Assembly (NCBI RefSeq): GCF_001029105.3
Contig: NZ_CP011807.3
Coordinates: forward strand, 2,480,001 to 2,544,000
DNA length: 64,000 nucleotides
Direction of reading: 5' to 3'
DNA from: Pandoraea faecigallinarum
GTDB lineage: Bacteria; Pseudomonadota; Gammaproteobacteria; Burkholderiales; Burkholderiaceae
Within the stretch, counting starts at the first letter, position 1; every line of letters begins with the position of its first letter. A program made the translations under genes and the position numbers. Below the pieces are notes generated by a model. The model was not told the origin of the DNA. It searched no databases and saw nothing but the letters and a program-made list of their open reading frames with translations. This document shows, one piece after another, positions 22,301 through 57,820 of the stretch.

Positions 22301-22316
22301 AGGCACGGAATTTGCT
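22301..22316 (+). promoter_or_regulatory. Sigma54 (-24/-12) promoter of the glgE operon
   Basis: AGGCACG-GAAT-TTGCT matches the RpoN consensus (TGGCACG-N4-TTGCA) with the invariant GG and GC at the correct 11-base spacing. The -12 GC is 48 bases before the glgE ATG. The string GGCACGGAATTTGCTG is identical to the one at 53389-53404 before the PIG-L operon. Confidence 0.7.
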
Positions 22317-22362
22317 GCATTGACGACGTCATCCGCCCGTGAGGGCTCGGGAGCTCGTCGCA

Positions 22363-25300
22363 ATGTCAAACTCGCTGTCACGTAAACGCGTCCACGACAC
22401 CGGGCCGCTCAGGACTACGGACGCGCGCGCCGGTGCAGCGCCCGACCGGAACCCTCCACGCGACCCTCCACGCATATACGCGTTGACGGCCCGCACGCTG
22501 CCCGCTCCGGACGACTGGTCAAGGCTCGTCGAACGGGTTGCGGGGCTCGGCTTCTCGCGTCTGCTGATCGACGAGGCGTCGTGCGGAAACACACTCCACG
22601 ATTATCTGCCGGCGCCGCGTCGCTTCGGGCTCGCGCTCGACGTTGCGGTCAATGGCGACCTCGCGCGCCGTGGCTCATTCGCCGGCCCGGCCGCGCCCGA
22701 TGCCGATTCGACTGGTCCCGGCACCGGCGCGGCCCCCCACCGCAACGACGATCCTCCCGATCCGCGGCATCCGCCTCGGGGTAACGGACTCGGCAGTGGC
22801 CTCTACCGTGCGCCGGTGTCCACTCCCCCGGGCGGCCTGCCCACCGCAAACGAGATGTCCGACGCGTTCGCCGTCCGACTGCGTCGGCTGGCGGAGCAAG
22901 GGGCCGACGGATTCTGTCTGCATGGCTTGTCGTCGCGGCCTGCCGCCGCGTGGCGGCGGCTGATCCGCGACATGCGCCGTCATTTTCCCGCACTCCAATG
23001 GTTCGGCTGGACGCCCGGACTACCGCGCGAGCAGATGGTGGCGATCGCCGGCGCCGGTTTCGACGGCGTGTTTCTCTCGTCGTGCTGGTGGGACATGCGC
23101 GCGTCGTGGCTCTTCGACGAGCATGCCGATCTTGCGGGATGTACGTGGCGCGTCGCGCTGGCGGGAGATCCGTTCGAATCGCCCGGCGATCTCGTCGCGC
23201 GCAGTCACAACGTGCTCGAATGTGCGCGTGCGCTTCAACTGGCGTTCGAACTCGGCGACGGCATTCTGATGCCCGCAGGTATGGAATACGGTCATGCGCA
23301 CGCGGGCAGCGAACTGCCGCTCATCGAGCCGTCGGCTGACGAGGCTCCCGCTGCGTCGGCCGTTTCCGATCACGAGATCGATTTCAGCCCGACCATTGCC
23401 GCCGGAAATCGACGATTGGCGGCGCAGGCGGCGAGTGCGGGTGCATCGCAAGACGCCACCAGCCCCCTTCCGGCCGCACGGGCCACGCTGCGATGCCTGT
23501 CCGGCGCCGACACCGCGATAACGCTCGTCACGCAGGAGATGCCGGGGGTGCCGACGCGTCGTATCGTCGCGATCAACCGTAGCCTGACGCAGGCGGCAAC
23601 GCTGCCAATGGCTGCCTGCGCAAGCATCGATCAGGTGAGACTCACCCCGCTCGATGCCCATGGCAACCCTTCCGGCGCGCCCGAAACGCTGACCCAGCTT
23701 ACGCTCGCGCCCGGCGAGGTCCGCTTCTGGCAAGCCGGGACCGAGCGCAGCGTGTCACGCCACGTTTGGCCCAGAGCGAAGCTCGGCACGGCGAACGAGC
23801 AGGACCGGCGTGCCGTGCGCGACGCCGCCGCCGAATCGCGCGTGGTCATCGAAGCCGTCGAGCCATCGCTCGAAGGCGGACGGTTCGCGGCGCGCGCCGT
23901 CGTGGGAGAAAGCGTCACGGTGTGCGCCGACGTCTTCACCGACGGCCACGCGCAGCCGAGCGCGGTGCTGCGCTGGCGGGCGCTCGACACCACGACGTGG
24001 CGCGAAATTCCCATGACGCCCCTCGGCAACGACCGATGGCACGCGGAATTTCGTCCGACACGGCTGGGCCGTCACGAGTATCAGATCGAGGCCTGGCAGG
24101 ATCCCTATGTGAACTGGTGTCGCGAAGTGGCGAAGAAACTCGACGCGGGCCAGTCCGTCGCGCTCGATATCCAGGAGGGGATTGCGTGTCTGAGACAGAT
24201 CGCCGAAGCCGCGCCGTCCGCGCGCGCCCGCAAGCCGCTCGACGCCATTGCGACGCAGGCGCAGCTTCAGGCACAGGCAGACGATCCCACGCTGGCCTAC
24301 CCTGCCCTGAGCGCGCCGGCCACGCTCGACGCCGTCGCGGCGGCTCGCTATCGTCCCTTCGTAATCCGGTCGGGCGCACTGCCCATTGACGTGGAACCGC
24401 CGGAAGCCGCATTCGCGAGCTGGTATGAGTTGTTTCCACGCTCGCAAAGCGGGGACGCTTCAAGGCACGGCACGTTCGACGACGTGATACGGCGGCTGCC
24501 GGCCATCGCGGACATGGGATTCGACGTGCTCTACATGCCGCCGATTCACCCGATCGGGCAAACGCATCGCAAGGGCAAGAACAACCGGCTCGAAGCGCAA
24601 CCGGGCGATCCGGGCAGTCCGTATGCGATTGGCGACGCTTCGGGCGGTCACGATGCCATTCACCCGGCGCTGGGCACGCTCGACGATTTCCGGCGGCTGC
24701 GCCTGGCGGCAAGCGCCCACGGCTTGCGCATCGCGCTCGATTTCGCGGTGCAGTGCTCGCCCGATCATCCGTGGCTGCGCGAGCATCCGGGCTGGTTCGA
24801 CTGGCGTGCCGACGGTTCGCTGCGCTATGCGGAGAATCCGCCGAAGAAGTACGAGGACATCGTCAACGTCGACTTCTATGCGCGGGACGCCGTGCCGGGA
24901 CTGTGGTTAGCCTTGCGCGACGTCGTCCTGTTCTGGGTTTCGGAGGGCATCGACCTTTTTCGCGTGGACAATCCGCACACCAAGCCGCTGCCATTTTGGG
25001 AATGGCTGATCGGCTCGGTCCGGGCGGCGCATCCCAGAACGGTCTTTCTTGCCGAAGCCTTCACGCGCCCGAAGCTGATGTACCGGCTTGCAAAGATCGG
25101 CTTCTCGCAGTCGTACACCTATTTCACGTGGCGCGAAACCAAGGCCGAACTCACCGAGTATCTGACGGAATTGCAGCAACCCGGCGTCGCCGCATGCTTC
25201 CGTCCGCATTTCTTCGTGAACACGCCGGACATCAATCCGTACCACCTGCAACACGGCGGCCGTCCCGTGCATCTTGCGCGCGCCGCGCTGGCGACCACGC

Positions 25301-25820
25301 TCTCGGGGCTGTGGGGGATGTACAGCGGGTTCGAGCTGTGCGAAGCCACGCCGTTGCCGGGCCGCGAGGAATACCTCGACGCCGAAAAGTACGAGATTCG
25401 CGCGTGGGACTGGGCACGCCCCGGCAATATCGTGCGGGAGATCACGGTGCTCAATCGCATCCGCAAGCGGCATCCGGCGTTGCAGACGCACCGCGGCGTG
25501 ACCTTCCTCGGCGCCGACAATCCGCATGTCCTGTATTTCGAGAAAGCAACGCCAACGCGCTCGGATGTCGTGCTCGTCGCGGTCAATCTCGATGCGCGCC
25601 AGTCCCATGACGCCACCATCGAGTTGCCGCTTTGGCGCTGGCAATTGCCGGACGCCGCCGCCCTCGCGGTCGAAAACCTCCTCGACGGCGCGCACTTCGT
25701 GTGGCACGGCAAGCACCAGCGTGTGCATCTGCCCCCGCACGCCCCTTATGGCATCTGGTCGGTTCGCCCGCAACGCGAACACGACCCGCGAGAAGAACGC
25801 AACGAGCGCCGGGAGACCCT

Positions 25821-25824
<4 letters not shown>
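22363..25824 (+). CDS. glgE: Alpha-1,4-glucan:maltose-1-phosphate maltosyltransferase with long N-terminal extension
   Basis: This GH13 enzyme transfers maltosyl units from maltose-1-phosphate to linear glucan. The GlgE module occupies about residues 490-1150: the N-terminal DUF3416-type domain, then the barrel with nucleophile Asp869 (LFRVDNPHTKP), acid/base Glu898 (FLAEAF) and Asp956 (NTPDINP), spaced 29 and 58 residues apart as in known GlgE. At 1153 residues it is far longer than the usual 650-700. The first 485 residues look like a second, degenerate barrel-like region (RRLAEQGADGFCLHGLSS, GFDGVFLSSCWWDMRASW) without a recognisable catalytic set. ATG 22363 has GGGAG upstream; a GTG at 22339 is an alternative. 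Its stop overlaps treS (ATGA). Confidence 0.92.
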
Positions 25825-29209
<3,385 letters not shown>

Positions 29210-29213
<4 letters not shown>

Positions 29214-31570
29214 GTCACGCCCAGCCCTCGCGCTCTGCGGTGCCCCATCACACCGAGGTGGACGGCGGCGACCGGCTGGCCTTGCCCGTCATGCAGCAAC
29301 ATGACGTGCAGGCGCTCATCGACGCGAGTCATCCCGATCCCTTCTCGGTGCTGGGGCCGCATCGCGAAGCGAGCGGCTGGAGCGTTCGGGCATTTGTGCC
29401 CGGCGCCGATAGTGTGGGGATCGAACGCCTGTCCTCGCCTGATGCGCAACCGATACCGATGCACCGGATTCACGCGGACGGACTGTTCGTCGCCGCCCTG
29501 CCCGCCGATGTCCCGGGCGTCGCGCACGCCCCGGCATATCGACTGCACATCGACTGGCCACAGGCACGGCAGATCACGGCCGACCCCTACGCGTTCGGCC
29601 TGCTGCTCGGCGAGTTCGATCTGCATCTGTTGCGCGAAGGCCATCACTGGCGCATTGGCGATTGTCTGGGCGCCCACGTCATGACGATCGACGACGTGCC
29701 GGGCGTGCGCTTCGCCGTTTGGGCACCGAACGCGAGCCGCGTGTCGGTGGTCGGCGATTTCAACGGTTGGGACGGACGCCGGCATCCGATGCGCCTGCGG
29801 CACGACGCGGGAGTCTGGGAACTTTTCATTCCGCATCTGGGTGCGAGCGAGCGATACAAGTTCGAGGTGCGCACCGCGGGCGGGACCGTGTTGCCGCTCA
29901 AGGCCGATCCTCTGGCGCGCATGACGGAAGCGCCTCCTGCGACAGCGTCCCGGGTCGCTTGCCCGTCGCCGTTCGTCTGGCACGACGACGCGTGGCTGGA
30001 CGAGCGCGAGCATCGTGTCGCGACGAACGCGCCCGTCGCCATCTACGAAGTCCACGCCGGGTCGTGGCTTCCGCCGGGAGACGACGGGCAGGCGTCCGCC
30101 CCCGCGCACTGGGATGCCCTCGCCGAGCGGCTGATCCCGTACGTGCGCGACATGGGCTTCACACACATCGAATTCTTGCCGGTGACCGAACACCCCTTCG
30201 CCGGTTCGTGGGGCTATCAACCGTTGAGCCTCTATGCGCCCACCGCTCGCTTTGGCGATCCGGCAGGGCTGGCGCGACTGGTGGATGCGGCGCACTGCGC
30301 CGGACTGGGCGTGATTCTCGACTGGGTGCCCGCGCACTTTCCGTCCGACGTGCACGGCCTTGCGCAATTCGACGGCACGGCGCTGTACGAGCATGCCGAT
30401 CCGCGCGAGGGATTTCATCAGGACTGGAAAACGAGCGTCTATAACCTCGGCCGCCGGGAAGTCGTCAATTTCCTCATCGGCAGCGCGCTCGACTGGCTGC
30501 GCCGGTTCCATGTCGACGGGTTGCGTGTGGACGCGGTGGCGTCGATGCTCTATCGCGATTACAGCCGCAAGCCGGGCGAGTGGGTGCCGAACCGGTATGG
30601 AGGACGCGAGAATCTGGAAGCGATTGCCTTCTTGCAGATGCTCAGTGAGCGCGTTGCACAGGACGCGCCCGGTGCCGCCTTGTTCGCGGAGGAATCCACG
30701 GCGTGGCCGGGGGTCAGTGCGCCGGTGGCCTCGGGCGGTCTGGGCTTCCATTACAAGTGGAACATGGGATGGATGAACGACACGCTGCGCTACATGGGCC
30801 GCGACCCCGTGTACCGCCGTCACCATCACGACGATCTGACCTTCGGTCTCGTCTATGCGTTTTCGGAGCACTTTGTCCTGCCCCTGTCGCATGACGAAGT
30901 GGTACACGGCAAAGGCTCGCTGATCGGGCGCATGCCGGGCGACGCGTGGCGCAAGCATGCCAATCTGCGCGCGTACTTCGGTTTCATGTGGACGCATCCG
31001 GGCAAGAAACTGCTCTTCATGGGCGCAGAGTTCGCCCAGCACGCCGAATGGAATCACGACGCACCGCTGGCGTGGTCGCAGCTGGACGACCCGGCCTGCC
31101 GTGGCGTGCAGCGCTGGGTCCGCGACCTGAACCGATGCTATCGCGCGCTGCCCGCGCTGTACCGGCTCGATGCGCAAGCCGCAGGCTTCTCATGGATCAT
31201 CGGCAACGACCGCGACAACAGCGTGCTGGCGTATCTGCGCCGCGGCTCGCCCCCTCATGACGGCGTGCAGGCGAAGGACGTATGCCTGGTCGTCGTCAAC
31301 TTCACGCCGCTGCCGCGCCACGACTACCGCGTGGGCGTACCGGTCGGCGGACGCTGGCGAGAAGCGCTGAATTCCGACTTGCCGTGCTATGGCGGCAGCG
31401 GCGTAACGAACGAGATCGATATGCCCGATCGCGCTCACGGCGAGCCGGGCGATGCTCAACGTCCCCAGAGTCCCCTTCAGACGCAGGGCGTGCCGTCGCA
31501 CGGACACCCGGTATCGCTCGCGCTGACGTTGCCGCCGTTGGGCTGTCTTGTGCTGATACCGGAGGAATAG
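29210..31570 (+). CDS. glgB: 1,4-alpha-glucan branching enzyme
   Basis: This 786-residue GH13 enzyme adds alpha-1,6 branches to the glucan made by GlgE. Domain order is an N-terminal CBM48-like pair ([23 protein letters not shown] at about 168-190), catalytic barrel and C-terminal beta domain. Catalytic residues are Asp441 ([11 protein letters not shown]), Glu494 ([11 protein letters not shown]) and Asp562 ([12 protein letters not shown]), with spacing identical to E. coli GlgB (405/458/526). The length exceeds E. coli GlgB (728), partly because of an insert of about 30 residues rich in Gln, Pro and His near the C-terminus (after [11 protein letters not shown]). Its ATG overlaps the treS stop. 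Confidence 0.95.
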
Positions 31571-31573
31571 CCG

Positions 31574-45660: not shown

Positions 45661-46692
45661 TCAGTGGGCCGCATGTTTGCGCATGCGCGTGATCGCCGTG
45701 CAGGCCAGCACCGCCGCGCCGACGGCCAGTGCGCCGCTCAGGCGCGGCCGTTTGGCCATCGTGGTGTACGGGCAGCTTCGGAACACCAAACCGTCCATGC
45801 CCTCGCGCTCCTGCATATCGCGCCCAGGCTCGTGCAGCGCGTTCTCTTCGCGGGGACGCGGCGGTTTGTCCGTGCGCTGCGAGCGGGAGAACAGGTTCGA
45901 TGCCATCCGGTCGAAAAGCCCCGGCATGTGGTAAGCGCTCGACGAGATCACCTTGGCCGCCGCGCCGACGAACAGGTCCCGGTGCGGATGAGTCGCCGCG
46001 TGGAGAATCGCGTCGGCGGCGAGCGTCGGGTCATAGATGGGGGGCGGCAGCTTCGGTTCGACGTCGAGGTAATTCTTGGCATGCTTGACGAACATCGTGT
46101 CGAGCGCGGCCGGTTTGATCAGCGTGACGCTGACCGGCGCCTGCACCGATTCGAGTTCGAGGCGCAACGAGTCGGTAAATCCCTTCACTGCGTGTTTGGA
46201 CGCCACGTAAGCGCTTTGGAGCGCAATCGGTGCGTCCGAGGCTTCGCTGCCCATGTTGATGATGGCGCCACCCACGCCGTCCTGCTTGCCGCGCAGATAT
46301 TCGGCGGCGACCAGCGAGCCATGCACTACGCCCCAGTAGTTCGTGTCGAAAAGCTTGCGCTGGTCGTCGAGCGGCACATCCGAGGCCGCCCCGAAGATCG
46401 ACACGCCGGCATTGTTGACCCACGTGTCGAATTCACCGAACGCTTCGATGGCCTTTACGGCGACGTTGCGCATCTGCTCGGCATCGCACACGTCGGCCTT
46501 GACAGGAATCGCCTGCCCGCCCTGCTCGCGGATCTCCTCGCAAAGTTGTTCGAGAGCGACTTCGTTACGGGCGACGAGCACGAGCTTTGCGCCACGGCGC
46601 GCCGCTTTGCGGGCCGTGACGAGCCCCACACCGCTCGTCGCACCGGTGATGACGATGACCTGCTCGGCGAGGGGTTTCAAGGTGTAGCTCAT
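45661..46692 (-). CDS. Short-chain dehydrogenase with C-terminal membrane anchor
   Basis: This 343-residue SDR has the cofactor motif TGATSGVG, NNAGVS and the catalytic Ser, Tyr and Lys (NMGSEA, YVASKHA). About 80 residues follow the catalytic domain: a basic/acidic linker and a hydrophobic segment near residues 320-335 (LSGALAVGAAVLACTAI), which may anchor it to the membrane. Substrate unknown. AGGAG precedes ATG 46692, and the start overlaps the stop of the 68-residue gene upstream (ATGA). Confidence 0.87.
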   Translation of the reverse strand: MSYTLKPLAEQVIVITGATSGVGLVTARKAARRGAKLVLVARNEVALEQLCEEIREQGGQAIPVKADVCDAEQMRNVAVKAIEAFGEFDTWVNNAGVSIFGAASDVPLDDQRKLFDTNYWGVVHGSLVAAEYLRGKQDGVGGAIINMGSEASDAPIALQSAYVASKHAVKGFTDSLRLELESVQAPVSVTLIKPAALDTMFVKHAKNYLDVEPKLPPPIYDPTLAADAILHAATHPHRDLFVGAAAKVISSSAYHMPGLFDRMASNLFSRSQRTDKPPRPREENALHEPGRDMQEREGMDGLVFRSCPYTTMAKRPRLSGALAVGAAVLACTAITRMRKHAAH

Positions 46693-46895
46693 TGGGCAGA
46701 CTCCTGAGTGAGAGAGTGCGGGAGACGAACACCGCATTGCAGCGGCATCGAAAAACGCTCGCCACGCCGGTCATCGGGAACGATGAACGGGTATTGCGCG
46801 GGCATGAAAGGTGGAATGTGACGGAACCAGGCATCCGGCGGTATCACCACGGCGGGCGCGAGTTGGCGTTGGGCTATGGGTAAGGCGGCGTTCAT
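46689..46895 (-). CDS. Small unknown protein, first gene of the stress operon
   Basis: A 68-residue protein with a strong ribosome-binding site (GGAGGA, 6 bases before ATG 46895) and ATGA coupling to the next gene; both support a real gene. It is proline- and aromatic-rich (VVIPPDAWFRHIPPFMPAQYP) and basic near the C-terminus, with no signal peptide. I do not recognise it. It is the first gene after the minus-strand sigma54 promoter at 46971. Confidence 0.65.
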   Translation of the reverse strand: MNAALPIAQRQLAPAVVIPPDAWFRHIPPFMPAQYPFIVPDDRRGERFSMPLQCGVRLPHSLTQESAQ

Positions 46896-46955: not shown

Positions 46956-46971
46956 TGCAAGTCGCGTTCCA
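46956..46971 (-). promoter_or_regulatory. Sigma54 (-24/-12) promoter of the stress/catalase operon
   Basis: On the minus strand TGGAACG-CGAC-TTGCA matches the RpoN consensus at all positions but one (A for C). The -12 GC is 62 bases before the ATG at 46895. It is divergent from the promoter at 47304, so the two may share an activator site. Confidence 0.65.
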
Positions 46972-47303: not shown

Positions 47304-47319
47304 TGGCACGCCACTTGCA
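47304..47319 (+). promoter_or_regulatory. Sigma54 (-24/-12) promoter of the GT4/UDP-xylose operon
   Basis: TGGCACG-CCAC-TTGCA is an exact match to the RpoN consensus, the best in the window. The -12 GC is 57 bases before the glycosyltransferase ATG at 47375. Confidence 0.8.
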
Positions 47320-47374: not shown

Positions 47375-48712
47375 ATGCAAAAAATAGCTTTGATCAGCGA
47401 GCACGCATCGCCGCTGGCCGCCATCGGTGGCGTCGATGCCGGCGGCCAGAACATCTACGTTGCCAACGTTGCCCGGCAACTCGTCTCACGCGGCTACCGC
47501 GTGGACATCTTCACCCGACGCGATGCCCCGTCACTGCCGGACGTCGTGCCGGTGGGCCGCAACATTCGCGTCGTGCACGTGCCCGCCGGGCCGCCACGCG
47601 AGATACCGAAAGAGCAACTGTTGCCGCATATGCATGAGTTTGCGGAATTCATGGTTCGCTACTGCGCGCAGGCCACGCCCGGATACGACATCCTGCACGC
47701 CAATTTCTTCATGTCCGGACAGGTCGGCATGCGGGTGCGCCAGGTGCTGGATATTCCGCTGGTGGTGACCTTTCATGCGCTGGGGCAGGTGCGGCGCCAA
47801 TGTCAGGGCGCTTCCGACACCTTCCCCGACGAGCGCATCCAGATCGAGCGCGCACTGGCGCGCACCGCCGACGCGATCATCGCGGAATGCCCGCAGGACG
47901 AAGCGGATCTGGTTTCCCTTTACGATGCCGACCCGCATCGCATCGAGATTGTGCCCTGCGGGTTCGATGCACATGAGTTTCATCCCGTCACGCGCGCCAA
48001 TGCGCGCGCGGCACTCGGCTGGGACGATGACGAGTTCGCCATCCTGCAACTCGGCAGGCTGGTGCCGCGCAAGGGCATCGATAACGTGATCCACGCCTTG
48101 CGGATCCTGCTCGACGATGCGGCCTGCGAGCGCAATGTTCGGCTGCACGTGGTCGGCGGGCCGGATTACAACGTTGACTTTTCGCACTGTGAGGAGTTGG
48201 CGCGACTGGCGCGACTGGCCGGGGATCTCGGCGTTGCCGATCACGTCGATTTCGTCGGGCGGCGTGATCGCGACGCCCTCAGAGACTTCTATAGCGCGGC
48301 GGATGTTTTCGTCACCACGCCCTGGTACGAGCCGTTCGGCATCACGCCGGTCGAGGCGATGGCCTGTGCGACGCCGGTGATCGGCAGCGACGTGGGCGGC
48401 ATCCGCACGACGGTCGTCGACGGCGAAACAGGGTTTCTCGTGCCCGCCAAGCACCCCGAAGCGCTCGCCGAACGCCTCGCACAGTTGCGCGACGACCGTT
48501 GTCTGGCACACCGGCTGGGACTCGCCGGGGCGCGACGTGCCAATCGCCATTTCACCTGGAGCGGTGTCGCGGATCAGCTCTGTGCCGTCTACTCGCGACT
48601 GGCGAGCGCGCAGCGCAGCAAGGCGACCGTCGTGCCGCTGCCCCCCGTGCGCACCATGACCATCAAACCGGCGGTGCCCGTCACCGCCACGCTCAAGGAG
48701 AGCATCCGATGA
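47375..48712 (+). CDS. GT4 family glycosyltransferase
   Basis: This 445-residue GT-B enzyme has the N-terminal donor/acceptor pattern of sucrose-phosphate-synthase/MshA-like GT4 proteins ([19 protein letters not shown]), the hinge region [16 protein letters not shown] and the E-x7-E motif in [21 protein letters not shown] split over two runs. It transfers a sugar from a nucleotide donor. UDP-glucuronate decarboxylase is coupled to it by ATGA, so UDP-xylose is a plausible but unproven donor. The C-terminal 35 residues are a basic, low-complexity tail. The ATG has CCGGAG upstream and follows the best sigma54 promoter in the window. Confidence 0.9.
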
Positions 48713-49737
48713 AGGAACTGCATCGCAAGCGCGTGCTGGTGACGGGAGGTGCCGGCTTTCTGGGGTCGCATCTGTGTGAACGGCTCGTGCTCGCCGGCCA
48801 CGACGTGCTGTGCGTCGACAATTTCTATACGGGCGTGAAAGACAACATCGCCCATCTGCTCGACGCCGGCAACTTCGAGCTGATGCGCCATGACGTGACC
48901 TTTCCGCTCTACGTCGAGGTCGACGAGATCTACAACCTCGCATGCCCGGCCTCGCCCGTACACTATCAACGCGATCCCGTGCAGACGACCAAGACGAGCG
49001 TACACGGCGCGATCAACATGCTCGGCCTCGCCAAGCGGACCGGTGCGCGCATACTGCAAGCCTCGACGAGCGAAGTGTACGGCGATCCCGGGGTGCATCC
49101 GCAGGCCGAATCCTATTGGGGCAACGTCAACCCCATTGGGCTTCGAGCGTGCTATGACGAGGGAAAACGATGTGCGGAGACGCTTTTCGTCAATTACCAC
49201 CGGCAGCATGGTGTGACCACGCGAATCGCCCGCATCTTCAACACGTACGGCCCGCGCATGCATCCGCTGGACGGACGCGTCATTTCGAATCTGATGACGC
49301 AGGCACTGCGCGGCGAACCCTTGACCGTGTATGGCGACGGCTCGCAGACCCGGGCGTTGTGCTATGTCGACGATCTTGTCGACGGGCTGATCCGGCTCAT
49401 GGCGGCCGACGTGCCGCCGGAGGTGCCGGTCAACCTAGGCAGCGATCACGAGTTGTCGATGCTCGACGTGGCGCGCGAAGTGCTGCGTGCCACGGGATCG
49501 AATGCGTCTATCGAGTTCCGGGCGCTGCCCTCGGACGACCCGCAACGACGTTGTCCCGATCTCACGACGGCACGCGAACGGCTCGGGTGGGCGCCGTCGA
49601 CCCTGCTCGCCGACGGGCTCGCCCGCACCGTTCGCTACTTCTCCCAGCGACTGGCGATGCTCTCCCAGGTCTCGCGCATCGACGCCCGGGCAACGCCCAT
49701 CGCTTCGCTGTCGCCGCTGAGCAATGCCCCGGTGTAA
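48709..49737 (+). CDS. UDP-glucuronic acid decarboxylase (UDP-xylose synthase) family
   Basis: This 342-residue extended SDR has the NAD motif [10 protein letters not shown] at 13-22, the catalytic STSEVYGDP and YDEGKR (Tyr, Lys), and the signature [10 protein letters not shown] that separates UXS enzymes from other epimerases. It would convert UDP-glucuronate to UDP-xylose for a surface polysaccharide. About 25 residues after the domain end form an Ala/Ser-rich tail that overlaps, antisense, the last 103 bases of the TPP-enzyme gene. It shares ATGA with the upstream GT4 gene. Epimerase activity on another UDP-sugar is the alternative. Confidence 0.9.
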
Positions 49738-51443
49738 TTGCGGAACATCTCCATCGTCATGTGCGGCGGGATAGGCGGAACGTTCGGGTCGGTGACCACA
49801 TCGAGCACCACGGGTAGATTCGCATCGAACGCCTCCCGCCATGCCGCGCCGAGATCGTTGGGATCTTCCACGCGGATTCCGCCTAATCCCAACTGCCGGG
49901 CATACGCCGCGTAGTCGAAGGGCGGCAACGACTGCGATACCGCGAAACGCGGATCGCCTTCCTGTGCGCGTTGCTCCCACGTCACCTCGTTCAGATCGCC
50001 GTTGTTGAGTACCAGCACGGCCAGCCTCGGATCGTCCCACGTTTTCCAGAGTGCCGACAGGGTGATCAGCTCGTTGATGCCGTTCATCTGCATCGCCCCG
50101 TCGCCTGCGAGCGCGACCACGACCCGCGACGGATACGCCATTTTCGCGGCAAGCGCATATGGCATTGCCGCGCCCATCGACGCCAGCCCGCCCGAGAGCG
50201 AACCCATCATGCCTTCGCGAAGCTGAACGTCGCGCGCGTACCAGTTCGCCGCAGTCCCGGAGTCGGCAGTGACGATGGCGTTCTCGGGCAATTGGTGCGA
50301 CAGTTCACGAAATACGCGCTGTGGGTTGATCGGCTTGGTGTCCGACGCCGCGCGACGGTCCATCACACGCCACCAGCGCGTTACGCGCTCCTGAATTTGC
50401 CGGCGCCAGTCGTCGTTCTGCCGCACGTGCAAGCGAGGCAGCAGCGCGTCGAGCGTTGCACGGGCGTCGCCGACCATCGCCACCTCCATGGGATAGCGCA
50501 GGCTCAGCATGCGCGGATCGATGTCGATCTGAACGCCGCGCGCCTGCCCCTCTTCCGGCAGGAACTCGGCATACGGAAATGCCGAGCCGATCATCAGCAG
50601 CGTGTCGCAATCGTTCATCATCTCCCAACTGGGCTGCGTGCCGAGCAAGCCGATCGCGCCCGTGACCCACGGCAAGGTGTCCGGAATGACGGCTTTGCCG
50701 AGCAAGGCCTTCGCCACACCCGCTTCGAGCCGATTGGCGACGTCGATAACGCCCGCCCCCGCCCCCATCGCGCCCGCGCCGACGAGTATCGCCACACGGT
50801 TGCCCGCATTGAGCACTTCGGCGGCGGCGTCCAGTTCGTCGTCCGAGGGAACGATGTGGCGCGGCGGCAGGCCCACGCCGTCGCGAATCGCGCCGCTGCG
50901 CACGGTGCCGTGAACACGTGGCGGAACGTCGACAGCCGGCAGATCCTGCACGTCGTTCGGCACGATGATGCAAGTGACGGCGCGCTGGTCATGAGCGATA
51001 CGAAAGGCGCGATCGATCACATGCCGTGCCTGGGCGGGTGTAACGATCTCCTGCACGTATTCGTGCGCCACGTCCTTGAACAACGCGTGCAGATCGACTT
51101 CCTGCTGGAAATCACCGCCGAGCGACGCGCGCTTTTGCTGTCCAACGATGGCGACCACCGGCTGGTGATCGGCTTTGGCGTCGTACAGGCCGTTGAGCAA
51201 GTGAATGGCGCCTGGGCCGGAGGTGGCTAGGCAGACACCCGTTTCCCCCGTGAATTTCGCGTGAGCGCACGCCATGAAGGCCGCCATTTCCTCGTGCCGC
51301 ACCTGCACGAAAGCCGGCTCGTTTTTCGCCCGCCCGAACGCCCCCACAATGCCGTTGATCCCGTCGCCCGGGTATCCGAATACACGCCGTACGCCCCATA
51401 GACGGAGCCGTTCGAGCAGAAAATCCCCTACGCGCTGTGTCAT
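49635..51443 (-). CDS. TPP-dependent enzyme, pyruvate oxidase/dehydrogenase-like
   Basis: This 602-residue protein has the three domains of the acetolactate synthase/PoxB family. The N-terminal Pyr domain has the cofactor-activating glutamate in RHEEMAAF (Glu51) and [18 protein letters not shown]. The middle domain is the FAD/nucleotide-fold one, and the PP domain has the TPP/Mg site GDGAMQMNG followed by [15 protein letters not shown]. It most resembles quinone-dependent pyruvate dehydrogenase (PoxB), though the C-terminal membrane helix of PoxB is not obvious. GGGAGG precedes ATG 51443, and a sigma54-type promoter sits 33 bases upstream. It could make acetate from pyruvate under stress. Confidence 0.88.
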
Positions 51444-51474: not shown

Positions 51475-51490
51475 CGCAAGGTTCGTGCCG
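51475..51490 (-). promoter_or_regulatory. Sigma54 (-24/-12) promoter of the TPP-enzyme gene
   Basis: On the minus strand CGGCACG-AACC-TTGCG has the invariant GG and GC in the correct spacing; two outer positions deviate from consensus. The -12 GC is 33 bases before ATG 51443, and the gap to the kinase stop at 51634 leaves room for an activator site. Confidence 0.6.
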
Positions 51491-51633: not shown

Positions 51634-53418
51634 CTATTGCGACGTCAGCGTCAGAATCTGTCGCGCCAGCGAACGCAAGTCGACGGGCTTCGCGACGTAC
51701 GCGCCAAAGCCGGCGGAAAGGGCCTGACGGCGCAGCGCATTGTCGGCGCGCGCGGTTACCGCCACGAGTGGAAGATTCGCCATGCCGCCGCGCGCCGCGC
51801 GGATCTCGCGAAGCTGCCGTGCGAGCCAGAACCCATCGCCGTCGGGCATCGCAAGGTCCGAGAGCACGATGGTCGGCATCGTTTCGCCAAGCGCGTCGAG
51901 CGCCTCCCGGCCGTTGCCGGCTTCATGGACTTCCGCGCCCAAGGTACGCAATGCGGCGGCCAGGCTCTCCCGCGACGGATCGTCGTCGTCCACCAGCAGG
52001 ATGCGGTGCCCTTCGAGCACGGTCGACGGGTGCGTCGGCCCAGGCACGGCGTCGGACGGGACACCCGCCGCCACGGGCCGGTCATACGGCAGACGCACCG
52101 TGAACCGGCTACCGGTCCCGGCGCCGCGGCTTGCCACCTCGACACTACCGCCGTGGAGTTCGGCAATGTGGCGCACGATCGATAGTCCCAGTCCGAGGCC
52201 CCGGCGCGGCGACACCGGCGCGTTGGACTCGCGCCGGAACGCGTCGAACACATGCGGCAGAAATTCGGGCGCGATGCCCTGACCGGAGTCGATGACGGAC
52301 AGCCGCAGCCAGTGCGCGTCCTGTTCCAGAGACACGCTGACATGCCCGCCGCGCGGGGTGAACTTGATAGCGTTCGACACAAGGTTCGTCAGCATTTGCC
52401 GCAGCCGCTCGCCGTCACCGAGAAGCAAGCCGGTGGTAGCCGACATGCTCGACGTGAGCGTCACGCCCTCGGCGTTCGCCATCGTCTGCATCGTGACCGT
52501 CACGTCATGCACGATGCGTTCCACGTCGACCAGTACCCGCTCCAGACGCAGCTTGCCGGTCGCCAGCGACGAGACGTCGAGAATGTCGTCGACCATGTGG
52601 GCCAGCGAACGTGCGCTACGGTCGATGGCGTCCACCGCCTGCGACTGCATCGGCTGACCCGAGGGGTGACGCAGCACCTCCACCCAACCGTAGATGGCGT
52701 TCAGTGGCGTTCGCAACTCATGCGAGACCGTAGCAAGCAACTCGTCTTTCAGACGATTGGACGTGTCGGCCTGATCGCGTTCGTCACGCGCTCCTCGCAG
52801 CGACTGCCGGATACGGCGGTTGTCGAGATGTCGCGCACTCTCGTCGCGCAGCAGAACCGTCGCGCCAACGCATTTGCCCGTATCGTCACGCAGCGGTGCG
52901 CTGGAGAACGTGGCGCGAAATGGCCGTCCGTCGGCACGCAGGCAGACGACGTCGACCGCCGTCGCTCGTGCGGCATCGACATTCCGGGGAAGCCGCAAGG
53001 GATGGCGGCTGAGCCAGTGGCGGGCGATGAAGCGCTGCGCACACTGCCCGATGGCATGCTCGGCCGGCACGCCGAACATGCGCTCGGCCGCAGGGTTCCA
53101 CTGCGTAATGCGAAGCTCGGTATCGACACTGAATGTCGCATTGGGCATGGCCTCCAGCACACGCTGTGCGTGGCGCGCGCCGCCCGGGGCACCCTCTGCG
53201 TCTTCGCCGCCATCGTCACCCTTGTCGTCATTGTTGCCATAACGTCCGAACGAGTAGGCCGCCAGCGCGATCACGGGGAAATAGAGCCATCCGCTCAATT
53301 GCGCGACACCGTGCGGCGCGCGGTGTCGCAGCCACAGGTCCAGCCCCCAGACCATGACAGCGCTCAGGAGAATGAGGGTCCAGCGCCCGGCACGGAATTT
53401 GCTGTTCACGATGGCCAC
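51634..53418 (-). CDS. Hybrid sensor histidine kinase/response regulator
   Basis: This 594-residue inner-membrane protein has two short membrane spans (about residues 13-29 and 43-58), an acidic linker, a PAS domain (about 85-195), a HisKA domain with His233 in SHELRTPLNAI, an ATPase domain with SNAIKFTP and GLGLGLSIV, and a C-terminal receiver with Asp521 (VLSDLAMPDG). The periplasmic loop is only about 13 residues, so sensing is probably by PAS or in the membrane. It may phosphorylate the NtrC-type regulator at 55213. The start is a GTG at 53418 (a GTG at 53409 is also possible). It is divergent from the PIG-L gene with 23 bases between starts. Confidence 0.9.
   Translation of the reverse strand: MAIVNSKFRAGRWTLILLSAVMVWGLDLWLRHRAPHGVAQLSGWLYFPVIALAAYSFGRYGNNDDKGDDGGEDAEGAPGGARHAQRVLEAMPNATFSVDTELRITQWNPAAERMFGVPAEHAIGQCAQRFIARHWLSRHPLRLPRNVDAARATAVDVVCLRADGRPFRATFSSAPLRDDTGKCVGATVLLRDESARHLDNRRIRQSLRGARDERDQADTSNRLKDELLATVSHELRTPLNAIYGWVEVLRHPSGQPMQSQAVDAIDRSARSLAHMVDDILDVSSLATGKLRLERVLVDVERIVHDVTVTMQTMANAEGVTLTSSMSATTGLLLGDGERLRQMLTNLVSNAIKFTPRGGHVSVSLEQDAHWLRLSVIDSGQGIAPEFLPHVFDAFRRESNAPVSPRRGLGLGLSIVRHIAELHGGSVEVASRGAGTGSRFTVRLPYDRPVAAGVPSDAVPGPTHPSTVLEGHRILLVDDDDPSRESLAAALRTLGAEVHEAGNGREALDALGETMPTIVLSDLAMPDGDGFWLARQLREIRAARGGMANLPLVAVTARADNALRRQALSAGFGAYVAKPVDLRSLARQILTLTSQ
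53388..53403 (+). promoter_or_regulatory. Sigma54 (-24/-12) promoter of the PIG-L/GT2 operon
   Basis: CGGCACG-GAAT-TTGCT has the invariant GG and GC with correct spacing; the -12 GC is 40 bases before ATG 53442. The core is the same as the promoter of glgE at 22301. It lies inside the first codons of the divergent sensor kinase gene, so the two genes' control regions overlap. Confidence 0.7.
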
Positions 53419-53441: not shown

Positions 53442-54212
53442 ATGACGCAACGCTACCTTCCCGAGACGTGGGAGACGTCGAACTGGCTGGTGATATCGCC
53501 CCATCTCGACGATGCTGTTTTCAGTTGCGGGCGGCTTCTCGCCAGCGCCCCCGGCGCCGTCGTCGTCACGGTCTTCGCAGGTATACCGCCCGACGATGTC
53601 GCGGCCCCCCCGTGGGACGAAGCTGCTGGCTTTGCGTCCGGCAATGCCGCCATGCAAGCGCGGCGCGCGGAGGACCGTTCCGCCCTCGAACTGCTGGGGG
53701 CCGAACCCGTCTGGCTGCCCTTTCTCGACCGGCAGTATGTGGAGGGCAATACGCCGGACGCCATTGCGCCAGCGCTCAAGGCCGTCATGGACCAATATCC
53801 GGAGCGCCGTGTGCTGAGCCCGCTGGGTCTGTTTCACAGCGATCACGCGCTCGTGTTCGATGCGGTATGGACCCTGCTCAACGAGCGCGCCCACGCCCTC
53901 GTCGGCGCCGGACCCGAGCCCGACCCCGGTATGGCGCAGCTCGAACGGTGGTGGTTTTACGAGGACATGCCATATCGCCGCCTCAGCGGTCTGGTCGGGG
54001 CGCGCATCGCGGCATGGCGCAACGACGGTTACGCCGCGCGTCGCGTCGACCCCGTGCTGCCCGAGCTTGCCGACGCGGATTATGCGGTGCGCAAGGTGCA
54101 GGCCATGGAGGCATACGAGAGCCAACTGGGTCTGCTGGATCCCGAGGCGTTGATCGAACTGAATACTTCCGAGAGTTATTGGCAACTGCAATGGTCTCCT
54201 GTATCGCGCTAA
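53442..54212 (+). CDS. PIG-L family deacetylase
   Basis: This 256-residue Zn hydrolase of the LmbE/PIG-L family removes N-acetyl groups from sugars or sugar conjugates. The zinc motif is at the N-terminus: His21, Asp23 and Asp24 in ISPHLDDAVFS, with a further histidine pair in FHSDHALVFDAV. An alanine replaces the second acidic residue of the common PHxDDE form. A role in modifying a surface glycan or a GlcNAc-linked metabolite fits the coupled glycosyltransferase. AGGA lies 10 bases before ATG 53442. Confidence 0.88.
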   Translation: MTQRYLPETWETSNWLVISPHLDDAVFSCGRLLASAPGAVVVTVFAGIPPDDVAAPPWDEAAGFASGNAAMQARRAEDRSALELLGAEPVWLPFLDRQYVEGNTPDAIAPALKAVMDQYPERRVLSPLGLFHSDHALVFDAVWTLLNERAHALVGAGPEPDPGMAQLERWWFYEDMPYRRLSGLVGARIAAWRNDGYAARRVDPVLPELADADYAVRKVQAMEAYESQLGLLDPEALIELNTSESYWQLQWSPVSR

Positions 54213-55150
54213 GTGCATCTCCCGCTCGTGTTGTCGTACGGCGGGATCCCCGTCTGACCGTCGTCGTCCTGTCCCATCGGCGCCCCTTCGAACTGCGGCG
54301 AACGTTGCGACGTCTCGTCGCGCTGCCCGAACGGCCCTCCATCATCGTGGTCGACAATGGTTCCGACCGCTCGCTCATGGACATGGTCCGGGAACAATTT
54401 CCCGACGTCACCCTGCTTCGCTCGGCGACGAATCTCGGCGCATGCGCCCGCAACATCGGTGTACGCCACGCCCGAACGCCTTACGTGGCGTTCTGCGACG
54501 ACGACACCTGGTGGGAACCCGGTTCGTTGTGCCTTGCGGCCGACTGGCTCGACAAGCACACGCATATCGGCGCCATGACGGCGCGGGTGCTCGTGGGCGT
54601 GGAGCGCCGCGAGGACACCACGAGTACCATCATGCGACGAAGCCCGCTCGACACGTTCTCCCGGCAACCCGGGCCGACGATTCTCGGCATGCTCGCCGGT
54701 GCGACGGTATTTCGCAGAGCCGCATTCATCGCCGCAGGGGGCTATCACCCCCGCTTCTTCCTCGGCGGTGAGGAGGCCCTTCTCGCACTGGACATGGCGG
54801 CGCGAGGCTGGACGCTCGTCTACAGCGATCAGTTGACGGTGCATCACTACCCCTCCCTCGTGCGCGACGTCGCCACACGACGGGCCACCCTCGCTCGCAA
54901 TGAGGTCTGGACCGCCTGGCTGCGTTTGCCGCTCGGCGCAGCATTGCGTCAAACATGGCGGCTCGCCCCGCGCGTGTGGCGCGAAGCAGGCGGCATTGCC
55001 GGCTGGGGCCACACGTTGCGCGGGCTGCCATGGACGTTGCGCGAGCGTCGCGTCATTCCCCCTCGCGTGGAAGCGATGCGCCGGCGCGTCGAAGCCGAGG
55101 AACGCCTCGCTGCCATGACCAAGGCCTCGGGCGCACGCCAACGCCGCTGA
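54191..55150 (+). CDS. GT2 family glycosyltransferase
   Basis: This 319-residue GT-A enzyme has the N-terminal nucleotide-binding strand LTVVVLSHRRPFELRRTL, then IIVVDNGSDRS, NLGACARNIG and the metal-binding FCDDDTWWE (DDD). The later motif GGYHPRFFLGGEEALLA is typical of the acceptor region. It overlaps the PIG-L gene by 22 bases, so it is translationally coupled, and it may act on the same glycan. The C-terminal 60 residues are basic and could lie along the membrane. A weak ribosome-binding site (GAGAG) precedes ATG 54191. Confidence 0.85.
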   Translation: MVSCIALSASPARVVVRRDPRLTVVVLSHRRPFELRRTLRRLVALPERPSIIVVDNGSDRSLMDMVREQFPDVTLLRSATNLGACARNIGVRHARTPYVAFCDDDTWWEPGSLCLAADWLDKHTHIGAMTARVLVGVERREDTTSTIMRRSPLDTFSRQPGPTILGMLAGATVFRRAAFIAAGGYHPRFFLGGEEALLALDMAARGWTLVYSDQLTVHHYPSLVRDVATRRATLARNEVWTAWLRLPLGAALRQTWRLAPRVWREAGGIAGWGHTLRGLPWTLRERRVIPPRVEAMRRRVEAEERLAAMTKASGARQRR

Positions 55151-55212: not shown

Positions 55213-56586
55213 TCATCCCGAGCGCGCCTTCGAACCGTCGTCCTTGCCGGGCGTCTCGGCCAGGCGGCTGTAGAGTGTCTTCAGGCTGATGTTGAGCATC
55301 TCGGCCGCCCTCGCCTTCACACCGCCGCATCGCGCCAGTGTGCCCAGAATCAGTTGCCGGTCCATGTCTTCGAGCGGCGTTTCTAGCGGGACGGTAACGC
55401 TGTCGTCGTTCACGATGGCCTCGTCCAGCTCGGCAAGGATCGGCGGCGGCAGCGTCTCGATCACCTCGCCATCGTTGAGAATGCGCGCTCGATGCACAAG
55501 GTTGCGCAATTCACGCACGTTGCCCGGCCAGTCGTACTCGCTGAGCGCCTTGAGTGTCGCGGCGTCGAAGCGCATCGTGCGGCCATCGGTTTCGGTCAGC
55601 GACGAAAGGAACGCCTTGGCCAGCATGGGGATGTCGTCGCCGCGTTCGCGCAGCGGCGGAAGTGTTACCGGAAACACGTTCAGGCGGTGATAGAGGTCGA
55701 GACGGAAACGCCCTTCGCTCACGGCGGCTTCCGGATTGACGTTGGTCGCTGCAATGATTCGCACGTCCACGTCGATTTCCTGTGTCGAGCCCAGACGCAT
55801 GAGCCGTCCGGTCTCGAGCACCCGAAGCAGTTTGACCTGCGACTCCGGTGGCATCTCCGTCACTTCGTCCAGAAACAGCGTGCCGCCGTCCGCCCGTTCG
55901 AAGAAGCCTTTGTGCTGGCGCTCCGCCCCCGTAAAGCTGCCACGGTCGTGACCGAACATTTCGCTTTCGACGAGATTGGCCGCAATCGCGCCGCAGTTGA
56001 CCGCGATGAAAGGTCCTTTGCGTCGCAGACTGAGATCGTGCACCGTTTGCGCGGCAAGCTCCTTGCCGGTGCCCGATTCGCCCATGAGAAACACGGACGC
56101 CTCGCTCGGCGCTACCCGGCTGATCGCGCGATAGACCGTCTGCATGGCCGGGGAACTGCCGAGCATTCGGCCGAATCGTCCCAGTTGCTGAAGTTCCCGA
56201 CGTAACGCAAGAATCTCGCCGCGAAGCTCGTCGGGACGAGGCACCCGCGCAATTATGCTGGTCAGACGCTGCATATTGAGGGGTTTGACGAGATAGTCTG
56301 CGGCGCCCTTACGCAAGGCATCGATGGCGGTGTCGAGGCTGGCGTGGCCCGTCATGAGCACGACTTCCACATTTGCCGCATGCGGAAAATCGCCGAGCAA
56401 ATCCATGCCGCTGCCATCGGGCAGCATGAGGTCCGCCAGAACCAGATCGGGCACCCGTTTGGCGGCCCGTTCGCGCGCTTGCGCGAGCGTGGACACGGCA
56501 TCGCACGTCAACTGTTGCGTCTGCACCAGCGCGCTCAGCATGTCGCGTGTGTCCGCGTCGTCTTCGACGATAAGAATGTATGGCAT
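55213..56586 (-). CDS. NtrC-family sigma54-dependent response regulator
   Basis: This 457-residue activator has an N-terminal receiver with the phosphorylation site Asp52 (LVLADLMLPDGSG), a central AAA+ domain with Walker A GESGTGKE, the sigma54-contact loop GSFTGA (usual form GAFTGA), Walker B GGTLFLDEVTEMP and the R-finger region, and a C-terminal Fis-type HTH (ARAAEMLNISLKTLYSRL). It opens sigma54 promoters when phosphorylated. I start it at ATG 56586, giving the canonical MPYILIVEDD; an in-frame ATG at 56601 is possible. No histidine kinase of its own is next to it, but a hybrid kinase lies 1.8 kb away. Confidence 0.92.
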   Translation of the reverse strand: MPYILIVEDDADTRDMLSALVQTQQLTCDAVSTLAQARERAAKRVPDLVLADLMLPDGSGMDLLGDFPHAANVEVVLMTGHASLDTAIDALRKGAADYLVKPLNMQRLTSIIARVPRPDELRGEILALRRELQQLGRFGRMLGSSPAMQTVYRAISRVAPSEASVFLMGESGTGKELAAQTVHDLSLRRKGPFIAVNCGAIAANLVESEMFGHDRGSFTGAERQHKGFFERADGGTLFLDEVTEMPPESQVKLLRVLETGRLMRLGSTQEIDVDVRIIAATNVNPEAAVSEGRFRLDLYHRLNVFPVTLPPLRERGDDIPMLAKAFLSSLTETDGRTMRFDAATLKALSEYDWPGNVRELRNLVHRARILNDGEVIETLPPPILAELDEAIVNDDSVTVPLETPLEDMDRQLILGTLARCGGVKARAAEMLNISLKTLYSRLAETPGKDDGSKARSG

Positions 56587-56827
56587 TGCGGTGTGCCCCA
56601 TGAGGACCGATATGGTCGCAATGTTCGGACAGCATCGGAATTTCGAGGTTGCCTGCGGCGTCATGCAATGTGGCTATCCGAAACGCTTCAGGTGCGCAAA
56701 CAATCAATCCGGTGCTGCGTTCGATACGTTACTCTTTATAGATCGAAATCCATCGAGCGTCTGTCAGCGCCGTCTTACAGATCCGGCTTCACCGGACGTT
56801 GCCGTCGGGGCAAACAGGGAGAAATGC

Positions 56828-57820
56828 ATGGCAGTGCATCAGAATGCGTGCACGCGACTCGCCGGAGACTCGCGAAGCGTGATGGCGTTGCGTGCCAACG
56901 TCGAACGGTTAGCTAACGTACCGGCCAGCGTGTTGATCGTTGGCGAAAGCGGCAGCGGCAAGGAGGTCGTTGCCCGGTGTCTTCATGACGTGAGTCCACG
57001 TCGCGCAGGTCCGTTCGTCGCCGTGAACTGCGCCGCCATTCCTCACGAACTGGCGGAATCGCAGTTGTTCGGTCACGAGCGGGGCAGCTTCACCGGCGCC
57101 GTTTCGCAACGCGTCGGCTTCTTCGAAGCTGCGTCGGGAGGCACATTGTTTCTCGATGAAATCCAGGACATGCCAATAGCGCTGCAGGTGAAGCTCCTGC
57201 GCGCTCTGGAGACACGCACGGTGGTTCGCGTCGGGGGCTATGAGCCGGTGAGCTTCGATACCCGGGTCATCGCCGCCACGCACGCGAATCCCGGCCGCGC
57301 CGTTCGTGACGGCCGTTTTCGGCAGGACCTGCTCTTCCGGCTGGCGGCATTCACGCTCCACGTGCCGCCGTTGCGACGCCGTGAGAACGATGTCGTCGCG
57401 CTGGCACAGTCTCACGTGGACCGGCTCAACGCTCTCGACGGCACGGTGAAGCGGCTGTCGTTGCAGTCGCTGGCCGTGCTTCGCCGGCACTCCTGGCCAG
57501 GTAACGTGCGAGAACTGCACAACACGATTGAGCGTGCGTTCATCATGGCGGACCGTGATCTGGAGCTTCAGCCGCTTCCGGTCCCGAAACAACGGGAAGA
57601 AGTGCTCGACGGCGCGCTCAACATCCCTATCGGCGCCACATTGGCGCAGGCGCAACAGTCGTTCATCGCCGCCACGCTGCGCCATTTCGGTGGGGACAAG
57701 CCGCGCACCGCGAAGGCGCTCGGCATCAGCCTGAAAACGCTTTACAACCGTCTCGCGCTAATGACCGGCGATGCGGAAAAATCGGAGAATAGCGAGGAAG
57801 CGGCCAACGCATTGTCTTGA
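56828..57820 (+). CDS. Sigma54-dependent transcriptional activator without a receiver domain
   Basis: This 330-residue protein is an AAA+ activator with only about 30 residues before the AAA+ domain. It has Walker A GESGSGKEVV, the sigma54 loop GSFTGA, Walker B GGTLFLDEIQDMP, LRVGG-like arginines (RTVVRVGG) and a C-terminal Fis-type HTH (PRTAKALGISLKTLYNRLAL). Lacking a receiver or PAS domain, it may be constitutive or controlled by a partner protein, as PspF is by PspA. ATG 56828 has GGGAG upstream. It is divergent from the NtrC-type gene; their 241-base gap shows no sigma54 site in proper spacing. Confidence 0.9.
   Translation: MAVHQNACTRLAGDSRSVMALRANVERLANVPASVLIVGESGSGKEVVARCLHDVSPRRAGPFVAVNCAAIPHELAESQLFGHERGSFTGAVSQRVGFFEAASGGTLFLDEIQDMPIALQVKLLRALETRTVVRVGGYEPVSFDTRVIAATHANPGRAVRDGRFRQDLLFRLAAFTLHVPPLRRRENDVVALAQSHVDRLNALDGTVKRLSLQSLAVLRRHSWPGNVRELHNTIERAFIMADRDLELQPLPVPKQREEVLDGALNIPIGATLAQAQQSFIAATLRHFGGDKPRTAKALGISLKTLYNRLALMTGDAEKSENSEEAANALS

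What the first reader, a model, noticed from the sequence alone, without database searches (positions are those of the whole stretch)
22301..57820. A sigma54-controlled island linking glucan/trehalose, catalase, central metabolism and surface glycan genes
Five -24/-12 sites with the invariant GG and GC at 11-base spacing lie at 22301 (+), 46956 (-), 47304 (+), 51475 (-) and 53388 (+). Each is 33-62 bases before a start codon of the first gene of an operon. All five have the core [ACT]GG[CA]ACG-N4-TTGC[ATG]. Two sigma54 activators and a hybrid kinase sit in the same 35 kb. Random matches would not be expected to fall only in front of operons. I know of no described regulon in which RpoN drives a GlgE/TreS operon together with catalase, PIG-L and glycosyltransferase genes.
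Basis: partly seen in the sequence, partly recalled or inferred. Interest (0 to 1): 0.88.

Follow-up and report, generated by a model that had tools for sequence, protein, structure and literature searches.

The report
Sigma54-controlled sugar-coat and stress-gene island
In a Pandoraea bacterium a block of genes for a surface sugar coat, for trehalose and glycogen-like glucan, for a catalase and for a pyruvate-type enzyme is preceded by eight conserved switches of the sigma54 type, which suggests that a dedicated sensor-activator system turns the block on together.

Summary
All five sites exist (two 5' ends are 46971 and 51490, minus strand). Three more lie 1.5-4.8 kb past the window, before a heptose/carbamoyl-transferase run, an ABC exporter and galE. 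All eight lie in 5' regions and keep GG/GC in 4 of 4 Pandoraea compared. In 2.85 kb of hand-drawn 5' DNA 8 sites score 10/12 or more; permuted motifs average 0.47, maximum 4 of 1000. Sites before GT4 and the heptose run recur in two other genera, before glgE in four. In genus g11 none was found directly before SDRb, ABC or KatE. One rpoN exists. PIG-L, full GlgE and TPP occur in the same 4 of 15 Pandoraea sampled.

Best reading: a dedicated sigma54 regulon, hybrid kinase to two activators to eight promoters, making and exporting a carbamoylated heptose glycan together with glucan/trehalose and stress enzymes. Transcription and wiring are inferred; KatE rests on operon continuity.

The parts
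22301..22316 (+). sigma54 site AGGCACGGAATTTGCT before glgE (likely ATG at 22363)
   Evidence: GG/GC kept in 4 of 4 Pandoraea
22363..40378 (+). glucan/trehalose gene run: GlgE, TreS-maltokinase, GlgB, GlgX, TreZ, MalQ, TreY
   Evidence: Pfam; NCBIfam TreS (two models), GlgX, TreZ, TreY above cut-off
40645..46895 (-). gene run: 68-aa ORF, SDRb, DUF2795, unknown, SDRa, DUF4142, KatE (catalase HPII type, below the NCBIfam cut-off)
   Evidence: Pfam; NCBIfam; ORF; order kept in 3 relatives
46956..46971 (-). sigma54 site TGGAACGCGACTTGCA before the run that ends in KatE
   Evidence: identical in 4 of 4 Pandoraea
47304..47319 (+). sigma54 site TGGCACGCCACTTGCA before GT4-epimerase
   Evidence: sites at score 9 or more in 5 of 5 g11 genomes and 16 of 16 Cupriavidus loci
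47375..49737 (+). MshA-like GT4 glycosyltransferase (below the MshA cut-off) and NAD-dependent sugar epimerase
49635..51443 (-). TPP enzyme, PRK08273 family, pyruvate oxidase-like
51475..51490 (-). sigma54 site CGGCACGAACCTTGCG before the TPP enzyme
   Evidence: identical in 4 of 4 Pandoraea
51634..53418 (-). hybrid histidine kinase: N-terminal hydrophobic stretches, PAS, HisKA, HATPase, receiver
   Evidence: N-terminus read by eye
53388..53403 (+). sigma54 site CGGCACGGAATTTGCT before PIG-L, inside the first codons of the kinase ORF
   Evidence: site before PIG-L in 8 of 8 g11 loci with the kinase-PIG-L-activator layout
53442..55150 (+). PIG-L deacetylase and GT2 glycosyltransferase (54206-55150, start codon not set)
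55213..56586 (-). activator 1: receiver, AAA+ with GSFTGA, Fis-type HTH (likely start 56586)
56663..57820 (+). activator 2: AAA+ with GSFTGA and Fis-type HTH, no receiver match (start uncertain)
57864..63996 (-). glycan gene run inside the window: GT, heptosyltransferase, carbamoyltransferase, heptosyltransferase; its first genes and its sigma54 site (65527, -) lie past the window (L031:1527)

Best explanation
A dedicated sigma54 regulon. A membrane hybrid kinase senses an unknown envelope or stress signal; phosphate passes to the receiver-type activator EBP1, which with the receiver-less EBP2 binds upstream DNA and opens RNA polymerase-sigma54 at eight promoters. These drive (1) synthesis and export of a surface glycan with a deacetylated amino sugar and carbamoylated heptose (PIG-L/GT2, GT4/epimerase, SDR-GmhB-heptosyl-carbamoyl run, MsbA-like exporter, galE), (2) the GlgE/TreS/TreYZ alpha-glucan and trehalose pathway, (3) a stress run ending in KatE, (4) a pyruvate oxidase-like TPP enzyme. 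Shown here: sites, conservation, gene content, the activator loops and rpoN. Inferred: transcription, the phosphorelay, which activator acts where, KatE by read-through, and the chemistry of the glycan.
For: Eight sites, GG/GC kept in 4 of 4 Pandoraea; 8 against a permuted mean of 0.47 in 5' DNA. One rpoN. Both activators carry GSFTGA and near-identical recognition helices. The glycan cluster with kinase and both activators keeps its order in 5 of 5 g11 genomes fetched, with sites before GT4 5 of 5 and SDRc 5 of 5 and before PIG-L 8 of 8 loci. Cupriavidus: GT4 16 of 16 at 9 or more (reversed control 2 of 16), SDRc 15 of 16 at 10 or more (control 0 of 16). glgE: sites in the fetched loci of g20 (5 of 5), g10 (10 of 10), g16 (3 of 3) and g3 (2 of 2). 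PIG-L, full GlgE and TPP each occur in the same 4 of 15 sampled Pandoraea. A conserved block GCCAAATTRCATNCGNYTG lies before SDRc and ABC/galE; no other place in the genome has fewer than 2 mismatches.
Against: No expression data. In g11: no site at 9 or more directly before SDRb (0 of 5), ABC (0 of 5 upstream of the start) or KatE (0 of 4); in 3 of 5 a score-11 site lies 1.1-1.2 kb upstream of ABC instead. In Cupriavidus no ABC site reached 10. g24: no glgE site in 5 of 6 loci and no TPP site in 11 of 11. Over all, TPP sites in 10 of 26 other loci (control 2 of 26). In g20, g10 and g16 the glgE site lies about 110-280 nt from the first possible start, far more than in Pandoraea, and in g3 it lies inside the open frame before a later start codon. 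Cupriavidus and Mycetohabitans show no EBP1/EBP2 in the stretches held yet keep sites, so there another activator would be needed. The shared upstream block serves only two of the intergenic regions, its genome-wide count (30) is near the control (24), and it does not stand out in g11. GSFTGA differs from GAFTGA at one residue. In P. fluorescens catalase rises without RpoN (PMC8202526).
Confidence: 0.72

Rival explanations
1. The promoters are true sigma54 promoters, but several activators serve them: the local pair serves the glycan genes, while glgE, TPP and the KatE run answer to other activators such as NtrC. It is then a neighbourhood, not one regulon.
For: glgE has a site in g3, g10, g16 and g20, where glgE and PIG-L lie on different contigs or more than 200 kb apart in the genomes I compared (G115, G079, G100, G095). 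In g11 the two are 45-470 kb apart in 7 of 7 genomes that have both. Conserved upstream blocks before glgE, GT4/o68, TPP and SDRc differ from one another.
Against: In Pandoraea PIG-L, GlgE and TPP are present or absent together, 4 of 15. The glgE, o68/GT4 and galE blocks share a loose CTRCAAAC element (read by eye, no test).
Confidence: 0.35
2. The sites are chance or serve another role; transcription comes from other sigma factors (RpoS or sigma70), as generally held for katE and trehalose genes (recalled).
For: Genome-wide, consensus matches barely exceed the control (92 against 77); the conservation test with coding DNA included is weak.
Against: Position, clustering and conservation.
Confidence: 0.06
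3. Only the glycan genes are sigma54 genes; glgE and KatE ride along as neighbours in Pandoraea.
For: The glycan cluster with sites exists without adjacent glgE in the g11, Cupriavidus and Mycetohabitans stretches held.
Against: glgE has its own conserved site in Pandoraea and in four other genera.
Confidence: 0.1

Closest known systems
RpoN/BerB control of berA and the bep exopolysaccharide in Burkholderia cenocepacia (PMC5552954, passages)
   Same: sigma54 plus a dedicated enhancer-binding protein controls a surface polysaccharide in the same family
   Different: in the passages seen, RpoN and BerB act on the berA promoter with c-di-GMP; here eight sites in one island, a hybrid kinase, different glycan genes, and glucan/trehalose and stress genes as well
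RpoN-dependent glgE/treS/treYZ expression in Pseudomonas fluorescens (PMC8202526, passages)
   Same: the same pathway falls without RpoN
   Different: transcriptome; 'binding site' has 0 occurrences in its text; no glycan island in the passages seen; catalase rises
NifA-dependent treS in Paraburkholderia phymatum nodules (PMC8305402, passages)
   Same: treS tied to NifA, a sigma54-type activator, in the same family
   Different: symbiotic setting; no glycan island in the passages seen
sigma54 as controller of the bacterial exterior (PMC3162934, passages)
   Same: the glycan half fits this general theme
   Different: 'trehalose', 'glycogen' and 'catalase' do not occur in its main text
sigma54 regulome of Desulfovibrio vulgaris (PMC4641369, passages)
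   Same: several exopolysaccharide/biofilm operons under response-regulator activators
   Different: other phylum; the passages seen do not mention a glucan/trehalose link

Membership tests
sigma54-dependent promoter | GG at -24 and GC at -12 with fixed spacing, close to TGGCACG-N4-TTGCW (consensus recalled) | tested here: met
   8 of 8 sites; 10 to 12 of 12 consensus positions
sigma54-dependent promoter | lies just upstream of a start codon on the right strand | tested here: met
   8 of 8, 31-86 nt from site end to the start codon taken; the ABC start is uncertain (ATG at L031:4662, 4581 or 4578)
sigma54-dependent promoter | genome has rpoN | tested here: met
   one match to PF04552, E 7.6e-67
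sigma54-dependent promoter | RpoN-dependent transcription start at the predicted +1 | not testable with these tools
   no expression data
sigma54 enhancer-binding protein (NtrC/AtoC-like) | AAA+ sigma54 interaction domain with the GAFTGA loop | tested here: met
   PF00158 E 2.4e-68 and 1.2e-64; the loop reads GSFTGA in both, one residue off GAFTGA, phenylalanine and threonine kept
sigma54 enhancer-binding protein (NtrC/AtoC-like) | Fis-type HTH | tested here: met
   PF02954 in both
sigma54 enhancer-binding protein (NtrC/AtoC-like) | upstream activating sites shared by the targets | tested here: inconclusive
   shared block before SDRc and ABC/galE, weak copy between EBP1 and EBP2; not found at the others
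GlgE alpha-glucan pathway | GlgE maltosyltransferase, TreS with maltokinase, GlgB side by side | tested here: met
   PF11896/PF21702, TIGR02456/TIGR02457, GlgB domains
bep/cepacian-type Burkholderia exopolysaccharide cluster | priming glycosyltransferase, polymerase and export lipoprotein (definition recalled) | tested here: not met
   none in the family tables of the island genes scanned (not every ORF was scanned); an MsbA-like ABC exporter instead

The most novel reading that the evidence does not exclude
In Burkholderiaceae sigma54, not the usual stationary-phase sigma factor, is the ancestral switch of a protective programme that couples an exported carbamoylated-heptose glycan to GlgE alpha-glucan/trehalose stores. 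In Pandoraea the programme, its kinase, its two activators, a catalase and a pyruvate oxidase-like enzyme were packed into one gain/loss island.
Probability: 0.3. Interest if true: 0.75.

Novelty: new variant of a known kind. Interest (0 to 1): 0.6.

Why it matters
Sigma54 promoters stay silent until an activator fires, so one signal could switch on coat, stores and peroxide defence together. Sites before glgE in five genera (Pandoraea and four more) give a promoter-level candidate for the RpoN effect on glgE/treS seen in Pseudomonas, and make it testable by site mutation. The glycan core also occurs in loci of Bacteroidota and Planctomycetota, so its product is likely of wider interest.

Tried and rejected
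o373 (54209-55330, minus strand) first looked like a partner of EBP1. It is an antisense reading frame: no family in Pfam or NCBIfam; the real gene is a GT2 glycosyltransferase on the plus strand.

IHF sites: WATCAANNNNTTR (recalled) comes within 1 mismatch only before SDRc (3 of 4 genomes), 2-3 elsewhere; not convincing.

An island-wide upstream motif: the best shared block covers SDRc and ABC/galE only. A copy between EBP1 and EBP2 in 3 of 4 Pandoraea scores 10-16, but hits of like score occur in coding DNA, and the g11, Mycetohabitans and Cupriavidus stretches show nothing above 13.3.

The conservation test with coding DNA included does not discriminate well (6 of 300 permuted motifs at or above the true count); I then used the 5'-region test.

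Ten consensus matches outside the island: seven downstream frames were scanned; three match a family (Gcw_chp, which I recall as a neighbour of glnK/amtB; a Na/H exchanger; an aconitase, whose site lies in an open frame of 679 codons), four match none; three were not scanned.

GlgE in other families of the class: 8 of 183 other genomes have it at E 1e-100 or better; I did not read their promoters, nor those of glgE in g11 or g25.

A look for an island remnant in Pandoraea genome G147 found only an N-terminal GlgE stretch (and a 28% kinase match), without synteny.
Full report
What was checked. The window is G000:C1:2480001-2544000 of a 5.73 Mb genome.

Is it more than chance. The textbook consensus (recalled) with one mismatch has no clear genome-wide excess (92 against 77 for the reversed pattern), yet 6 of 50 C1 hits with intact GG/GC lie in one 46.5 kb stretch (simulated P 0.003; next best window 3), and with a 31.1 kb window the best stretch holds 5 (P 0.009); widths were chosen after the fact. 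In 2852 bp of 5' DNA of the island, intervals drawn by hand, 8 sites score at least 10 of 12; 1000 permuted motifs average 0.47 and never exceed 4. With coding DNA included, 6 of 300 permuted motifs do as well as the true one. Of ten matches sampled outside the island, seven downstream frames were scanned and three matched a family.

Three more sites. A search for sites kept in relatives found 65527 (-), 68683 (-) and 68814 (+), just past the window (L031:1527, 4683, 4814). They precede an SDR gene (ATG 81 nt from the site's 5' end) that heads the GmhB-heptosyltransferase-carbamoyltransferase-heptosyltransferase-GT run, an MsbA-like ABC exporter (start uncertain), and galE. All eight sites keep GG and GC in 4 of 4 Pandoraea.

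Gene content. glgE, treS-maltokinase, glgB, glgX, treZ, malQ, treY; a minus-strand run of 68-aa ORF, SDRb, DUF2795, unknown, SDRa, DUF4142 and KatE; an MshA-like GT4 with a sugar epimerase; a TPP enzyme of the PRK08273 group, above its curated cut-off; a hybrid kinase whose N-terminus has two hydrophobic stretches (read by eye); PIG-L plus a GT2 glycosyltransferase; two activators. Both activators read GSFTGA and share SLKTLYxRL in the HTH. EBP2 has no receiver match.

Relatives. In a sample of 150 genomes of the family, 15 are Pandoraea; at the cut-offs used PIG-L is in 4 of 15, full GlgE in the same 4 (a fifth, G147, has only an N-terminal stretch), TPP in the same 4. The cluster ABC-SDRc-Hep2-Carb-Hep1-GT-EBP2-EBP1-PIG-L-kinase-epimerase-GT4-SDRb-DUF2795-SDRa-DUF4142 keeps its order in 5 of 5 g11 genomes fetched, with no glgE or TPP in the stretches and KatE, where seen (4 of 5), about 9-20 kb away. 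Sites in g11 at score 9 or more: PIG-L 8 of 8 loci, GT4 5 of 5, SDRc 5 of 5, SDRb 0 of 5, ABC 0 of 5, KatE 0 of 4; a score-11 site lies 1.1-1.2 kb upstream of ABC in 3 of 5, and a score-9 match near the DUF2795 start in 4 of 5, neither followed. Cupriavidus, 16 loci: GT4 16 of 16 at 9 or more (reversed control 2 of 16), SDRc 15 of 16 at 10 or more (control 0 of 16), PIG-L 13 of 15 at 10 or more but at different distances (control 1 of 15); ABC none at 10 or more; SDRb, where a true neighbour (7 loci), 7 of 7 at 9 or more at varying distances (control 2 of 7). The TCGC form of the -12 element before SDRc recurs in Pandoraea, g11, Mycetohabitans and Cupriavidus. PIG-L of Mycetohabitans has no site upstream, 0 of 4.

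glgE elsewhere. Of 26 non-Pandoraea glgE loci fetched (of 85 matching non-Pandoraea genomes or fewer; the closest were fetched), 20 have a site: g20 5 of 5, g10 10 of 10, g16 3 of 3, g3 2 of 2; g24 has one possible site among 6. The distance to the first possible start is about 110-280 nt in g20, g10 and g16; in g3 the site lies inside the open frame before a later start codon. In g20, g10 and g16 motif columns are 94-100% identical while the 40 bases before the site are 15-46% identical; the expressions used to place the sites fix most motif columns, so the weight lies in every fetched member having a match, not in the percentage. TPP: sites at 9 or more in 10 of 26 other loci (reversed control 2 of 26), none in the 11 g24 loci.

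Upstream elements. Alignments of the four Pandoraea show conserved blocks upstream of most sites. One, GCCAAATTRCATNCGNYTG, is shared by SDRc and ABC/galE; the best other place in the genome has 2 mismatches, while the total within 3 mismatches (30) is near the control (24). A weak copy sits between EBP1 and EBP2 in 3 of 4, at scores that also occur by chance. This hints at one activator and at autoregulation but does not cover all promoters.

How it most likely works. Signal, hybrid kinase, EBP1 (and EBP2), sigma54 at eight promoters, then coat, stores and stress enzymes. The promoter step is well supported by sequence; the wiring is inference; KatE depends on read-through from site 46971.

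What is known. RpoN-dependent glgE/treS expression is in print for Pseudomonas (PMC8202526, passages; it cites Damron 2012, not held). treS falls in a nifA mutant of P. phymatum (PMC8305402, passages). RpoN- or NtrC-linked polysaccharide control in Burkholderia s.l. is known (PMC5552954, PMC5491218, PMC5979394, passages), and the exterior theme is general (PMC3162934, passages). A P. syringae study ties alpha-glucan genes to CbrB and names RpoN once (PMC8982409, passages). Two further papers were not held. A search for papers holding Pandoraea, sigma-54 and exopolysaccharide together found 0. So the mechanism is of a known kind; the combination, the number of promoters and the glgE sites across genera are the new part.

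Noticed in passing
G000:C3, nine places listed: The 16-mer CGGCACGCCAATTGCA, a near-consensus sigma54-like site, is repeated nine times on the small contig, perhaps inside an insertion sequence (not checked).
   Followed up: no
L114-L171: Relatives of the carbamoyltransferase, mostly with heptosyltransferase-like and GT4 neighbours, occur in loci of Bacteroidota, Planctomycetota, Chloroflexota and Verrucomicrobiota, so the glycan core is far wider than this family.
   Followed up: partly
22363-23838: GlgE carries about 490 residues before the GlgE N domain; in Pandoraea genome G147 an open frame of 280 aa matches the first 273 residues at 49%.
   Followed up: partly
56587-56830: A weak copy of the SDRc/galE upstream block lies between the divergent activator genes in 3 of 4 Pandoraea, a possible autoregulation site.
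   Followed up: partly
53388-53418: The PIG-L site overlaps the first codons of the divergent kinase ORF, so coding constraint may add to its conservation in Pandoraea.
   Followed up: no
47375-48712 and 53442-54212: GT4 resembles MshA (below its cut-off) and the deacetylase is of the PIG-L class, the pair used in mycothiol synthesis (recalled); here they stand with other glycosyltransferases and an exporter.
   Followed up: no
g11 stretches of G126, G148, G093 (L044-L052): A score-11 sigma54-like site lies 1.1-1.2 kb upstream of the ABC exporter; what stands between was not read.
   Followed up: no
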